54,472 nucleotides of DNA, from the NCBI GenBank assembly GCA_031290095.1, contig JAITOF010000092.1, positions 1 through 54,472 of the forward strand, given 5' to 3'. The notes under the pieces were generated by a model that worked only from the letters and a program-made list of their open reading frames with translations, had not been told where the DNA came from and ran no database searches. This DNA comes from Candidatus Methanoplasma porotermitis (GTDB taxonomy: Archaea; Thermoplasmatota; Thermoplasmata; Methanomassiliicoccales; Methanomethylophilaceae). Numbering within the stretch: position 1 is the first letter of the stretch; each line of letters begins with the position of its first letter. The position numbers were made by a program, and so were the translations under genes. Shown in pieces: positions 342 to 54,472 of the stretch.

Positions 342-1859
342 TCACTCTCTGCGCAGGCGTATCTTCTGGTTTGGGCTGTTCACCCTGTCCGGGTACAGGT
401 ATTCCGCCTTCCCGCCGTCGATCATTCTGCCGACCGCGCCAATCAGGCCTTTTGTAGTTGCCGAATATCCCATCTTCTGCGATATCTCCCTCATAGAAAG
501 ACTGCCTTCTTTTTTCAGCAGGTCTGACAAAAGCCTGTCCACCTCTTCTGCCGTCCGGCGCACCCTCTTCTTGTTTTCGAGGGGGCCGTCCGCGTCGTGG
601 TTTTTAATGAACCCGGCATGGACGGGGAGTATTGCAGTGAAGTATGTCCTATCCTCGTCAGTATCGAAAACTGGAAGTTCGGACCCGTTCGCCTGCATGG
701 CCCTGACCATCAGAGGAACGCCGGTGTTCCTCCCTTCGACCAGTTTAAGCTCCTTCAAGAAATCGCCTATGCGCCTGTTCCGGTTGAACTTGGACACCAT
801 GCGCCTTTTCTTGATGTCGTCTGCCGATATCGATCTGTCCGGGCCGGGGATGCTTGTGATCTCCATCATTTCCGGAGTTATCGTGACCGTGATCGGTTCT
901 GGAATCTGATAGCTTTTGTGATATACTGCGTTCGAAAGGGCCTCTTCTACCGCGGAGTAGGGGTAATTGAAGAACCTTGCGGCTTCAGGTCGACCTTGGA
1001 TCTTGACGACTTTTTCCGTGATGATATAATTTTTAATATAATTGAGAGAATCCTTCAGCTGCCTGTCCAACGGCCCTGCGAACACCTTTTCCGTCATCCC
1101 CGTTCCCGTGGGGTCCGGCTTGTCGACTACTTCTATGCGAGCATATCTGAAGAAATTGTCTGGCCTGTCGTTGAAGAACATAAGTCCTGCGTTCACCGGC
1201 CTGACGCACTCCGGCGGCCCTCTGGCCAGGCGCAGGTTGTATGCGAGGTCCGTCAGCGAGACATCGACCGACGTCTCGAACAGCTCACTTTCAATCCCAT
1301 AGAGGTAATCTGAGATCAAGTTAGGCTTAAGGTCCTGAAGAACTGCGTTGTTGTTCGCCCTGTCGTCGAAAGGAAGCGTCTCCGACAGCTGGAAAAGCTC
1401 CTTCTCTTCGGATGGATTGGCACGCATCGTGGCCGACGCCTTTCTGATGTAGTGCGCCTTTTCCGATTTTGTCCTGTCCGCAACGAGTTTCGCAGGACAC
1501 TTGTAAGGGCGTGCGTCACCGCCCGGGACCCATATGACGAGGATGTCCGCGTCTCTGTAAACCGCATGTTCGACGACGGGGATGTATCTTGGTTCGATCA
1601 GATTGCATATCCGTACCAGCTCCTTGCAGGTCCGGTCGATCGAATCGACGTTCAGTCCCGACACTGGTATCTTGGGCCTGCCGTTCTCTTCATCAATTCC
1701 AAGCACCACGTATCCTCCGCCCCAGTTATCGATGTCGTTCGCAAAGGCGCAAATCGTGTGCAACACGCGTTCTGGATTCCAATCCTTCTTGTACTCTATG
1801 CGGGCGCCTTCTACAACGCGTCGCTCCAACAAATCCATGATATTGATTGGCAATGCCAT
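342..1859 (-). CDS. AlbA_2 (Schlafen-like) putative transcriptional regulator with GHKL-type ATPase domain
   Basis: A 505-residue protein. Residues about 10-140 look like the AlbA_2/Schlafen DNA-binding domain (RIEYKKDW near 20, a glycine-rich GGGYVVLGI near 47-55). Residues about 290-420 resemble the C-terminal HATPase_c_4 region of 'RecG-like' regulators, with EALSNAVYHKSY at 306-317. The last 75 residues look like a winged helix. These proteins are usually called transcriptional regulators; their targets are mostly unknown. The start at 1859 is preceded by a weak GGGA and, 15 bases further up, by a 12-bp tandem array that overlays the expected promoter position, which suggests autoregulation (inference). 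A second family member lies at 52510-53880. Confidence 0.8.
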   Translation of the reverse strand: MALPINIMDLLERRVVEGARIEYKKDWNPERVLHTICAFANDIDNWGGGYVVLGIDEENGRPKIPVSGLNVDSIDRTCKELVRICNLIEPRYIPVVEHAVYRDADILVIWVPGGDARPYKCPAKLVADRTKSEKAHYIRKASATMRANPSEEKELFQLSETLPFDDRANNNAVLQDLKPNLISDYLYGIESELFETSVDVSLTDLAYNLRLARGPPECVRPVNAGLMFFNDRPDNFFRYARIEVVDKPDPTGTGMTEKVFAGPLDRQLKDSLNYIKNYIITEKVVKIQGRPEAARFFNYPYSAVEEALSNAVYHKSYQIPEPITVTITPEMMEITSIPGPDRSISADDIKKRRMVSKFNRNRRIGDFLKELKLVEGRNTGVPLMVRAMQANGSELPVFDTDEDRTYFTAILPVHAGFIKNHDADGPLENKKRVRRTAEEVDRLLSDLLKKEGSLSMREISQKMGYSATTKGLIGAVGRMIDGGKAEYLYPDRVNSPNQKIRLRRE

Positions 1860-50941: not shown

Positions 50942-51653
50942 CGAATGGGAGCCTACCTACGAGCAGGTCCTTGCAGACATGGGATACGACCGTGCCGACG
51001 ACGAGACCTCGGCGCGAGTGCTTAGAATGGCGACTTTGGGCTCCGACCTCGTGGACGACGACGTGTTGCGCCGAATCGTCGGGAGGGAGGCAACCGTCCT
51101 CGGGGACGCGCCGTGCCTCGTCGACGATATAACGAGGATAGGGCGCATAGGCGCCGTGATATGCTGCGGGTCGGCCGTCGGCAGGGCCGCCGCCGCAGGA
51201 GTCGCGCCTGACGTCGTCGTCACAGACTTGGACGGCGACATAGGCCCGCAGATACTCGCCTGCAACGCGGGCGCAGTCGCAGTGATCCACGCCCACGGCG
51301 ACAACCCGCCGCTTATAGCGAGATACGCGTCAGAGTTCAAAGGGCCGGTGATGCTCACCTCGCAGTCGGCGCCGGTCGGCGGCGTGTCCAACTACGGCGG
51401 GTTCACCGACGGGGACAGGGCGGTGTGCCTTGCGAGGCATTTCGGGGCGCGGCGCATACGCCTGCTCGGGTTCGACCTCGCGAACCCAATGGCGAAGGAG
51501 GGGTCAGACCCTGGCACGAAACTGAAGAAGCTCGTGTGGGCGGAGAGGATAATATCCATCGGAGGCTTGGACGACATAGACCTGCTGTCGTCCGATTACG
51601 TGGTCGACAACATAATCCTTAGAAGAGACGTCAGTCCCAAAAAGAGTCAATGA
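50931..51653 (+). CDS. mptE: 6-hydroxymethyl-7,8-dihydropterin pyrophosphokinase (MptE)
   Basis: A 240-residue DUF115-family archaeal HPPK analogue making the pterin pyrophosphate for methanopterin or folate. It shows VICCGSAVGRAAAAGVAPDVVVTDLDGD and HAHGDNPPLIARY, the usual acidic active site; RLLGFDLANPM and KLKKLVWAERII follow. Overlaps the DUF373 stop by 11 bases, with GGAAGGAG upstream. Its 3' end overlaps the convergent HEPN gene. Confidence 0.93.
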   Translation: MRFDEWEPTYEQVLADMGYDRADDETSARVLRMATLGSDLVDDDVLRRIVGREATVLGDAPCLVDDITRIGRIGAVICCGSAVGRAAAAGVAPDVVVTDLDGDIGPQILACNAGAVAVIHAHGDNPPLIARYASEFKGPVMLTSQSAPVGGVSNYGGFTDGDRAVCLARHFGARRIRLLGFDLANPMAKEGSDPGTKLKKLVWAERIISIGGLDDIDLLSSDYVVDNIILRRDVSPKKSQ

Positions 51654-52008
51654 GGGAGACGAACTCTTTTGACTTGGTAGTCAACTCTTGCCCGTCCCAA
51701 GGGGGCATGACGTAACTGCCGTATCTTGATTCGACTGCGAACAGAGACATGAAGGAAACGAACGCTTGGTGTTCGTCGCACAGGTTGGATTCGGGAAAGA
51801 GCTTCAGGAGTGCGACAAGATCACGTGTTTTCGTGTAAGCGACATTGTGTTCTTGGAGGCGGGCTTTCATCATTTTTTCTAGAAACTGTTGCAGATGAAA
51901 ACATATCTGCGCCAATAGCTCGTCGTTGCTGTCAAGTATTATCTCGGCAACCGTCAAATCCTCGATCGCTCTTTGCCTTAAGGCCTGAACGTCATTGAAT
52001 TGAGCCAT
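51631..52008 (-). CDS. HEPN-domain protein, putative RNase toxin
   Basis: A 125-residue helical protein with AEIILDSNDELLAQICFHLQQFLEKMMKARL, the PF05168-type HEPN core, and ESRYGSYVMP near the C-terminus. The first helix differs from the HepT/DUF86 at 44730, so this is a separate HEPN family. Starts 17 bases inside the upstream nucleotidyltransferase gene, with strong GGGAGGG. Paired use suggests a toxin-antitoxin module. Confidence 0.8.
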   Translation of the reverse strand: MAQFNDVQALRQRAIEDLTVAEIILDSNDELLAQICFHLQQFLEKMMKARLQEHNVAYTKTRDLVALLKLFPESNLCDEHQAFVSFMSLFAVESRYGSYVMPPWDGQELTTKSKEFVSLIDSFWD

Positions 52009-52312
52009 AAACTACCCTCCCTGTGTCTATGGCCTCGCTTACAAGAGAGTACCGGTTGGAGCGTTCTTTATCAAACTCTTCAGGGGTATAGACGATGATG
52101 TCGATCGGGATGTTGGAATCCTCCAGAGCAATCATAGCTTTGGCACCGCGGATGAGCCTGTGCTCGTCCGATTCTTTGACAAGAATGAGGTCCACGTCGC
52201 TGTCGTCGTCTGCAGTGCCTTTTGCGACGGATCCGAAAAGAATGATGACGTCGGGGCGTATGAGGTCCTTCGCCATTTCTATGACTCTGTCTGCCTCGGC
52301 GTAGTCGAACAT
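51992..52312 (-). CDS. MNT-type nucleotidyltransferase
   Basis: A 106-residue minimal nucleotidyltransferase: VIILFGSVAKGTADDDSDVDLILV is the GSxxxGxxxxxSDxD active site. Start ATG 52312 (begins MFDYAEADRVIEM) with TATA-like TTTTATAC 26 bases upstream; the extension to 52390 is not supported. Overlaps the HEPN gene by 17 bases as in other NT-HEPN modules. Confidence 0.85.
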   Translation of the reverse strand: MFDYAEADRVIEMAKDLIRPDVIILFGSVAKGTADDDSDVDLILVKESDEHRLIRGAKAMIALEDSNIPIDIIVYTPEEFDKERSNRYSLVSEAIDTGRVVYGSIQ

Positions 52313-52450
52313 GTTATCGGCCTTCAGATAGCTGACGCCGTATAAAACGGTGATACAGGGCGTTCCCTCGAGAACCTGCACAAGCGGCAAGGGGCCGCCG
52401 ATGCATAGGACATTGCTGACGGCTCGTAGTCAGATAAGAAAAAGATGCTT

Positions 52451-52515
52451 GATTCACAGCCTGCGAACGGGATTCACAGCCTGCGAATCCATTCGCACGG
52501 TGTGAATAGTCACAC
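52451..52515. repeat. Direct and inverted repeats between the AlbA_2 gene and the NT/HEPN module
   Basis: GATTCACAGCCTGCGAA occurs at 52451-52467 and 52471-52487 (20-bp period), followed by an imperfect ATTCGCAC/GTGTGAAT hairpin and a perfect GTGTGA-ATAG-TCACAC (52500-52515), which covers the stop of the AlbA_2 gene. Candidate terminator or regulator sites. Confidence 0.6.
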
Positions 52516-53880
52516 TTTGCGGCCTGTCAGCTTCCAGGCTCCCTTTCTGCCGCCGTCCTTTGTGACGATGCCTCTGTCGACAAGAGACGCCAAGGCATAA
52601 TCTACCTTCCCCCTTGTCAATCCGGACTCTCTCAACAGAGCCGCCGCTGTCATTCCGCCTGCTCCAAGCAGGGACACGATCCTCTCCTCCGCGCTTCCAA
52701 AGGGCGCATCCCTCGCGCCGCCGGGCCTGTCTCTCACGTACGCCTCTCTGAAGAAAGTGACGACGAAGTCTATCCCGTCCTCCTTGATCTCCGGCGCAGG
52801 CAACCCGGAATCTGCGCACAGCCGGTTCATCTTCCTGATCCCCGTGCCGAAGCTTTCTATCAGTCCCGCGGATTTAAAGGCGGACAGGACGACCTTGTTC
52901 CTGGCCATGGAGCGCCCGGACAGGACCTTGTCCATGTCTATGCCCCACGGAAGCATCCCTGGGGATAGGAACTCCACTTTTCCATCGTACACAGACACGA
53001 AGGAGACGCTCTCCTGAATCGTGTAGTTCCGGTGTATCGCCATGTTGAGGGCGGCCTCCCTCAACGCGTCCTCCGGCAGCTCGTAGACGTCCTTCCTGTA
53101 CAGGCCGCGGAGCTCCATCCCGAGACGGATGTGCGACAGGACGAACTTGTACGCCTCGTCCGCCTGGCGGATTATGGACCCTCCGAACTCCTTCCTGTCG
53201 ATGACGACGCTCCTGTCCGTCTTGAACAGGCCGCAACGCATGCAGGCGTGAGAGAACGGGTTGTCGTCGCAAAGCAAGGCGAAGGCGTTGGTCGGACGGA
53301 TTCCGTCGCCTGTCTGTATCAACAGCTTCATGTTCAACAAATCTGTTTTTGTGAACGTCCTGCCAGACCTCTCGCCGAGGAGCGCGCACACTTCAGATAT
53401 GCGGGCGTCGGTCGCTTCAAACCCGATGCAGGACTGCTCGTCGAAGGAAACGCCCCTGCCGGACCTTCTGAGGTCATCGACGACCTCCGGAGACGCGAGG
53501 ACGGATGTCGCCCCCAAGCGGACGTAGGTGCCTTTCAGCACGCCTTCGTGCTTCAGGAAGTAGGGGCGGGCGCCGCTTTCGTTGACTTCTACGACGATGA
53601 GGTTCTTGTCGCCCACGGTGGCAAGGAATATCTCTGGCAACAGCTACGGATGGCAGTTGGCGTTGACGGAATCCGCTATGGAGTCCATCATCCCGAATAT
53701 CGTATCGTCAGGGACGCCGATTATCTCTCGTTCGTCGTTCACGCCGAAGACTATCTTTCCAGACGAGGTGTTGGCGAAGGCCACCACTGTCTTCAGGAAG
53801 CCGCGGCGGTCTTCAGGGAGCGTGGCCTTCAGCTCCAGCTTCTTGCTTTCTCCGGCGGATATCTCGTCCTCGAGCGACAT
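52510..53880 (-). CDS. AlbA_2 (Schlafen-like) regulator with an in-frame TAG codon
   Basis: One continuous frame of 456 sense positions if TAG at 53644-53646 is read. The first 78 residues (MSLEDEISAGESKKLELKA ... GKIVFGVNDE) are the start of an AlbA_2 domain. The stretch after the TAG (LLPEIFLATVGDKNLIVVEVNE, YVRLGATSVLASPEVV) completes it. Then come the HATPase_c_4-like region (LREAALNMAIHRNYT, SFGTGIRKM) and a winged helix. The AlbA_2 domain is split only by the TAG. As separate frames the parts would be 53644-53880 and 52510-53640, the latter with a TTG start inside the domain. ATG 53880 follows AGGAG. In a pyrrolysine-using archaeon this may be one protein with Pyl at 79; elsewhere it would be a pseudogene. 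Confidence 0.7.
53644..53646 (-). other. In-frame TAG (amber) codon
   Basis: On the minus strand the codons read CAT CCG TAG CTG TTG CCA. Both sides stay in the same frame, so this is not a frameshift. A C-to-T change from CAG would also produce it. Confidence 0.85.
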
Positions 53881-54370
53881 TGTACTCCTGTTCTGCATGG
53901 CAGGCGTTCTTATTAACGATATTGGAGAACCGGGCGCGAGGCAGGCAGGATCTTTGCGCCATGTCTGGAGTCGTGCCAAGGACGCTTCTGCGTTCGTAGT
54001 CGCGCCTCTGCATTCGACCTGATGCCAGGATGTCAGAACGGGCGCCAGCACGGAACCGCCGGCTTCTAATTCTGTTCCAAAGAAAGTATGCGCGCCGTAA
54101 AAATGCACAGCGTCGCACGCACATGACGCTGCATCTGCGTCGCCGTGCGTTGCGGGGCCGCGCGCCGTCGAGCAAAAGCAAACACGATCCCGCCTGCCGC
54201 GTGACTGCGACCATGCGCGCCTGCCGTCGGAGGGCCATCTCGCGACCGCAATGACGATTTCATTCCAGCGGGGAATTCGAGTCGCGGCCAAGAAAGCCGA
54301 CGACGCCTGCGAATCGACCTGTCGCATCCGGCGCGGAGGTTCCGTAGAGGTGAAAAGGGGTCCCTGAATC
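53881..54370. other. Gene-free stretch before the right edge
   Basis: About 490 bases. TATA-like CGTTAATAAG (53910-53919) serves the AlbA_2 gene. Minus and plus frames through the rest are open in places but rich in Arg/Cys/Ala without protein character. GC-rich partial inverted repeats occur near 54110-54155; I do not recognise an RNA. Confidence 0.4.
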
Positions 54371-54472
54371 ATGGCTGACGCCTCAAAAAGCACGCTTGTG
54401 CCGTCGCATTTCGAAGCGGACAAGACCGTGGTTTTTGCTGACGGAATTTTACTTTTACCCCCCCCCCCCCCC
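54371..54472 (+). CDS. Possible N-terminus of a gene running off the right edge
   Basis: ATG 54371 opens a frame that begins MADASKSTLVPSHFEADK and continues to the end of the window, where it becomes poly-Pro because of the C run. No clear Shine-Dalgarno at good spacing. Too short for identification. Confidence 0.25.
   Translation, partial: MADASKSTLVPSHFEADKTVVFADGILLLPPPPP
54458..54472. other. Terminal poly-C run
   Basis: Fifteen consecutive C's end the window. This looks like an assembly or sequencing edge rather than biology. Confidence 0.6.

What the first reader, a model, noticed from the sequence alone, without database searches (positions are those of the whole stretch)
52510..53880. 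AlbA_2 regulator gene read through an in-frame TAG, candidate pyrrolysine protein
Two frames separated by exactly one TAG codon together make a complete AlbA_2/HATPase protein; the TAG falls inside the AlbA_2 domain. Pyl is known mainly in methylamine methyltransferases, so a regulator or defence-like protein with Pyl would be new. The alternative is a nonsense mutation (CAG to TAG).
Basis: partly seen in the sequence, partly recalled or inferred. Interest (0 to 1): 0.8.

Follow-up and report, generated by a model that had tools for sequence, protein, structure and literature searches.

The report
Amber-interrupted AlbA_2 gene in pyrrolysine archaeon
A DNA/RNA-binding regulator gene in a gut-type methanogen has a TAG "stop" codon in its middle that the cell can very probably read as the rare amino acid pyrrolysine; the codon looks like an ordinary C-to-T mutation that this organism tolerates, a kind of event already described in its close relatives.

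Summary
Window 52510-53880 (-) is one 456-codon reading frame, interrupted only by TAG at codon 79 (53644-53646), inside the AlbA_2 domain; HATPase_c_4 and a winged helix follow. The genome, of the Methanomassiliicoccales kind, carries tRNA-Pyl(CUA), pylS, pylB, pylC, pylD and MtmB, MtbB and MttB genes with in-frame TAG. In 704 kb of it TAG ends about 1% of genes. Six TAG-interrupted frames had the TAG inside one Pfam domain, among them the genome's only 3-dehydroquinate synthase II; none of 24 frames interrupted by TAA or TGA did. So TAG here is very probably read as pyrrolysine and the full-length protein is made, at least in part.

Nothing suggests a special role for that residue. The closest homologue (68-69% identical) has CAG, and no relative has TAG there. 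The site lies in a variable loop, and no PYLIS-like element was found. It looks like CAG-to-TAG drift tolerated by the pyrrolysine code. This is known: 16 extra predicted Pyl proteins in "Ca. M. alvus" (Cas1, a transcription factor, an ATPase) and 46 amber genes in ISO4-H5 (Cas3). A new instance of a known kind; protein-level incorporation is unproven.

The parts
52510..53880 (-). Whole gene: AlbA_2 - HATPase_c_4 - winged helix protein, 456 codons plus TGA, with one in-frame TAG
53644..53646 (-). In-frame TAG, codon 79; CAG (Gln) in the closest homologue
53497..53850 (-). SLFN_AlbA_2 domain (residues 11-128), spans the TAG
52753..52998 (-). HATPase_c_4 domain (residues 295-376); R274, E275, N279 and H283 just before it are invariant in the 27-row alignment
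52546..52674 (-). C-terminal winged helix (residues 403-445), weak TrmB/MarR-type matches
53885..53889 (-). AGGAG, Shine-Dalgarno-like, 4 nt before the ATG; no comparable site seen after the TAG
   Evidence: sequence read directly
53909..53916 (-). TTAATAAG, TATA-box-like, about 30 nt upstream of the ATG (unverified promoter)
   Evidence: sequence read directly

Best explanation
The gene encodes a nucleic-acid-binding AlbA_2 / GHKL-type ATPase / winged-helix protein in a methylotrophic methanogen that decodes UAG as pyrrolysine. An ancestral glutamine codon (CAG) in a variable loop became TAG by one C-to-T change. tRNA-Pyl(CUA), charged by PylS, reads that codon, so the full-length protein with pyrrolysine at residue 79 is made, perhaps with some 78-residue truncated product. 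The residue has no special role: the change was tolerated because TAG has become close to a sense codon in this lineage. Shown: the reading frame, the domain-internal TAG, the cassette, the near-absence of TAG stops, the TAG-interrupted single-copy DHQ synthase II, and the CAG in the homologue. Inferred: translation through the TAG, the residue inserted, surface exposure, neutrality.
For: tRNA-Pyl with CUA anticodon, then pylS, pylB, pylC, pylD and mtmB with TAG on contig C24; PylS closest to PylRS of ISO4-G1, PDB 8IFJ. MtbB and MttB also with in-frame TAG. Stop use in 607 predicted genes of a 704 kb sample: 493 TGA, 87 TAA, 5 TAG, although TAG makes up about 23% of stop triplets over all six frames. 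DHQ synthase II: one copy in the genome, one TAG inside, sense codons in all relatives. Same-domain interruptions: TAG 6, TAA/TGA 0 of 24. Closest homologue CAG, others CAG, CAA, ACG, ATG, GTC, TAC and so on. Residue 79 is in a loop between helix 61-75 and strand 83-89, model pLDDT 90.5, where some homologues carry insertions. Low dN/dS on both sides against the homologue (0.217/1.27 upstream, 0.201/2.32 downstream, dS near saturation), and no excess of changes on this gene's branch (13 against 22 downstream, 6 against 6 upstream).
Against: No protein or RNA data. The family is large and fast-changing (18 matches in this genome) and contains fragments, so a recent dead copy is possible. The nearest homologue is itself frameshifted near residue 318-323. 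No relative shares the TAG. TAG still ends about five sampled genes, so read-through may be partial. The gene finder used for the counts is a home-made codon-score heuristic.
Confidence: 0.76

Rival explanations
1. Recent nonsense mutation in a dispensable member of an expanded gene family: the gene is a young pseudogene and only the first 78 residues, or nothing, is made.
For: Many paralogues in the genome; the closest homologue has a frameshift; a second paralogue with an in-frame TAG on contig C25 appears to lack the N-terminal domain; no TAG at this site in any relative.
Against: tRNA-Pyl and PylS are present, so a TAG is not expected to be null; same-domain interruptions in the sample are all TAG and none TAA or TGA, which random nonsense mutation would not give; 377 intact codons downstream and no excess of amino-acid changes on this branch.
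Confidence: 0.15
2. Assembly or sequencing error: the true base gives CAG and the gene is ordinary.
For: The window is one contig of a 97-contig assembly and the gene begins about 590 bases from its end, which is a run of C; no reads are available.
Against: A single substitution error inside a 1371-base gene with no other damage is unlikely in a consensus; TAG-interrupted conserved genes occur elsewhere in the same genome.
Confidence: 0.05
3. Selected pyrrolysine: the residue, or read-through that depends on Pyl supply, has a function, for example making the regulator conditional on methylamine use.
For: The TAG lies in the putative nucleic-acid-binding domain and pyrrolysine supply is tied to methylamine metabolism (established knowledge).
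Against: The site is variable: homologues have Gln, Thr, Met, Val, Tyr, Leu, Arg or Asp there and none has TAG; no Rfam PYLIS match, and predicted RNA structure after the TAG is weaker than shuffled sequence (z +1.6); the acidic positions of the Schlafen motif map to codons 11-48, not near residue 79.
Confidence: 0.04

Closest known systems
Extra predicted Pyl-containing proteins of 'Candidatus Methanomethylophilus alvus' (Borrel et al. 2014, PMC4153887)
   Same: Same order judging by PylS; pyl cassette; TAG stop use very low (1.6% there, about 1% here); in-frame TAG in non-methyltransferase genes whose homologues lack TAG; list includes Cas1, a Rv0623-like transcription factor, a Fic protein and a 444-residue ATPase-domain protein
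   Different: Different genome; whether any listed protein belongs to the AlbA_2/HATPase_c_4 family was not tested; neither DHQ synthase II nor AlbA_2 is named in the part of the table I read
46 amber-containing genes of methanogenic archaeon ISO4-H5 (PMC5011839)
   Same: Pyl-decoding relative with in-frame amber codons in varied genes, including the defence gene cas3, insertion elements and metabolic genes
   Different: No AlbA_2 regulator named in the text read
Pyrrolysine in tRNA-His guanylyltransferase by neutral evolution (Heinemann et al. 2009, cited in PMC4153887 and PMC9723677; paper itself not read)
   Same: Non-methyltransferase gene that gained a Pyl codon by drift, judging by its title
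   Different: Another protein; there the protein was studied experimentally (own knowledge)
DIP2311 of Corynebacterium diphtheriae (PDB 3LMM) and Schlafen AlbA_2 proteins (SLFN11, SLFN14)
   Same: 3LMM is the best solved match over the whole length (sequence E 2e-39, Foldseek E 3e-22); Schlafens match the first part of the AlbA_2 domain
   Different: None is known to me to carry pyrrolysine; the position that aligns with the third acidic residue of the SLFN11 site is Asn48 here (SLFN11 residue numbers from memory)

Membership tests
Pyl-decoding genome (TAG as pyrrolysine) | tRNA-Pyl with CUA anticodon and pyrrolysyl-tRNA synthetase | tested here: met
   L034 8587-8663 tRNA-Pyl; PylS over NCBIfam cut-off, 8IFJ best PDB match
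Pyl-decoding genome (TAG as pyrrolysine) | pylB, pylC and pylD biosynthesis genes | tested here: met
   Open frames directly downstream of pylS with PylB-, PylC- and PylD-like sequences in conserved order; pylB homologue next to pylS in 12 of 12 fetched relatives. Named by reading and gene order, not by a family model
Pyl-decoding genome (TAG as pyrrolysine) | In-frame TAG in methylamine methyltransferases | tested here: met
   MtmB two copies each with one TAG, MtbB and MttB
Pyl-decoding genome (TAG as pyrrolysine) | TAG rare as a stop | tested here: met
   5 of 585 terminated genes in the sample
Pyl-containing protein | Full-length frame with homology across the TAG | tested here: met
Pyl-containing protein | Pyrrolysine present in the protein (mass spectrometry) | not testable with these tools
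   no proteome available
Pyl-containing protein with a selected role | TAG conserved in orthologues | tested here: not met
   Sense codons in all aligned homologues; no close strain available
PYLIS-type element | Structured RNA just after the TAG | tested here: not met
   No Rfam match to RF01982; folding z-score +1.6. Not required for Pyl insertion (PMC3639795)
Schlafen-type AlbA_2 nuclease | Three acidic active-site residues | tested here: inconclusive
   E11 and E16 align with the ES...EFK motif; the third position aligns with N48 (catalytic role from memory)

The most novel reading that the evidence does not exclude
Read-through of this TAG depends on pyrrolysine supply, so that the full-length regulator is made mainly when methylamine metabolism is active, which would couple a gene-regulation or defence protein to the cell's pyrrolysine state.
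Probability: 0.04. Interest if true: 0.7.

Novelty: new member of a known kind. Interest (0 to 1): 0.27.

Why it matters
It adds a well-controlled example to the view that, in some Methanomassiliicoccales, TAG has drifted into a general pyrrolysine codon, with incidental pyrrolysine in ordinary proteins. Practically, standard gene calling splits such genes: here a regulator and, more tellingly, the only DHQ synthase II of the genome would be annotated as broken.

Tried and rejected
Independent downstream gene starting after the TAG: rejected as unlikely, since the AlbA_2 domain and the alignments run through the TAG, the nearest candidate starts are TTG and GTG, and no Shine-Dalgarno-like site was seen there. 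PYLIS element: no Rfam match and no unusual folding. Defence-system membership: PADLOC matches are weak and partial (best E 1e-7 to part of a pAgo-associated model), and no NCBIfam model matches. TAG hits on L034 + and L043 - were discarded: each frame holds many TAGs, and the L034 frame is antisense-like, without a domain match. dN/dS is of limited weight because dS is near saturation. Codon 79 was first noted as 53642-53644; corrected to 53644-53646.

Full report
WHAT IS THERE. On the minus strand, 53880 to 52510, lies a frame of 456 codons and a TGA, open except for one TAG at codon 79 (53644-53646). The protein has an SLFN_AlbA_2 domain at 11-128, HATPase_c_4 at 295-376 and a weak winged-helix match at 403-445. 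Twenty-six homologues align with it, and nearly all cover the TAG position. An AGGAG stands 4 nt before the ATG; none is seen before the candidate starts after the TAG. Next to it, same strand, are a nucleotidyltransferase gene (51992-52390) and a HEPN gene (51631-52008).

DOES THE GENOME DECODE TAG? Yes, by every genomic test available. Contig C24 carries tRNA-Pyl(CUA), pylS, pylB, pylC and pylD in order, and mtmB with TAG. PylS is closest to the solved PylRS of ISO4-G1, 8IFJ, which places the organism among the Methanomassiliicoccales (inference; no name is given for the genome). MtbB and MttB have the in-frame TAG too. PylS is found over the cut-off in 14 of 17 genomes of the genus.

IS THE TAG MORE THAN A NONSENSE MUTATION? 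In 704 kb of the genome a codon-score scan predicted 607 genes, ending in TGA 493, TAA 87 and TAG 5 times (the rest run off contigs). TAG makes up about 23% of stop triplets in all six frames (8328 of 36600), so it is strongly avoided as a terminator. The same scan listed frames with good coding signal on both sides of one stop. For TAA and TGA there were 24, and in none did a Pfam domain run across the stop; the domains lay on one side or the other, as at the border of neighbouring genes. For TAG, after discarding five hits in two frames that hold many TAGs, six remained, and in all six one family or domain runs across: this gene, MtmB, MtbB, MttB, 3-dehydroquinate synthase II and a PF03496-domain gene. 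DHQ synthase II is the most telling: one copy in the genome, one TAG, and sense codons in all eleven copies from ten relatives. Its site, like this one, is variable (Gly, Glu, Lys, Asp). Three of the six are methyltransferases, where the TAG was expected, so the comparison free of those is three against none.

WHERE DID IT COME FROM? The closest homologue, in another genus of the family, is 68-69% identical and has CAG; others have CAG, CAA, ACG, ATG, GTC, TAC, TTG, AGA or GAC. One C-to-T change explains the TAG. Amino-acid differences against that homologue are few compared with silent ones on both sides of the TAG, and with two outgroup proteins this gene's branch shows no excess of changes (downstream 13 against 22, upstream 6 against 6). 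That speaks against long-standing decay but cannot exclude a very recent loss. The homologue itself has a frameshift near residue 318-323.

WHAT DOES THE PROTEIN DO? The AlphaFold model is confident (mean pLDDT 90.5, pTM 0.76). Residue 79 lies in a loop between helix 61-75 and strand 83-89. The best solved relative over the whole length is DIP2311, 3LMM, an uncharacterized protein; 2KYY and the SAMD9 DNA-binding domain (7KSP) match more weakly. E11 and E16 align with the first two acidic residues of the Schlafen motif; the third position is Asn48, so nuclease activity is doubtful and nucleic-acid binding is the safer guess. R274, E275, N279 and H283 are invariant, and E275 and N279 fit the N-box of GHKL ATPases (established knowledge). 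I infer an ATP-dependent nucleic-acid-binding regulator. Without read-through the AlbA_2 fold is cut in the middle.

VERDICT ON NOVELTY. Borrel et al. (PMC4153887) predicted 16 additional Pyl proteins in 'Ca. M. alvus', where TAG ends 1.6% of genes, and argued that with tRNA-Pyl at work a new in-frame amber codon becomes a stable mutation. ISO4-H5 has 46 such genes, with cas3 among them (PMC5011839). The present gene fits that pattern exactly. A 2025 report of archaea in which all TAG codons are read as pyrrolysine is known to me from memory only; it was not found in the library searched.

LIMITS. No reads, no proteome, no close strain. The stop counts come from a heuristic gene finder on about 43% of the genome.

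Noticed in passing
L034 about 6672 (-), G000 contig C24; also L118 and L110: pylB itself ends in TAG, just before the pylC ATG, in this genome and in G002 and G015, while several other genus members end it in TGA; read as Pyl it would add about 25 residues here.
   Followed up: partly
L078 12216 (+), G000 contig C31: The only 3-dehydroquinate synthase II gene of the genome has an in-frame TAG at codon 142.
   Followed up: yes
L075 3447 (-), G000 contig C28: A gene with a PF03496 (ADP-ribosyltransferase) domain has an in-frame TAG within that domain; not pursued.
   Followed up: no
L039 about 1189 (-), G000 contig C25: A second HATPase_c_4/winged-helix paralogue has a TAG between its two domains and seems to lack the N-terminal AlbA_2 part.
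   Followed up: partly
window 342-1859 (-) and whole genomes: The AlbA_2/HATPase_c_4 family is expanded: 18 matches in this genome, 21 in G003, few or none in many others of the order; another copy sits at the other end of this window.
   Followed up: partly
window 51631-52390 (-): Overlapping HEPN and nucleotidyltransferase genes, the layout of HEPN/MNT toxin-antitoxin pairs, directly downstream of the gene.
   Followed up: partly
L047 about 7069 (+), G023: The closest homologue is frameshifted near residue 318-323, by real damage or by a sequencing error.
   Followed up: no
window 54459-54472: The contig ends in a run of C, probably an assembly artefact.
   Followed up: no
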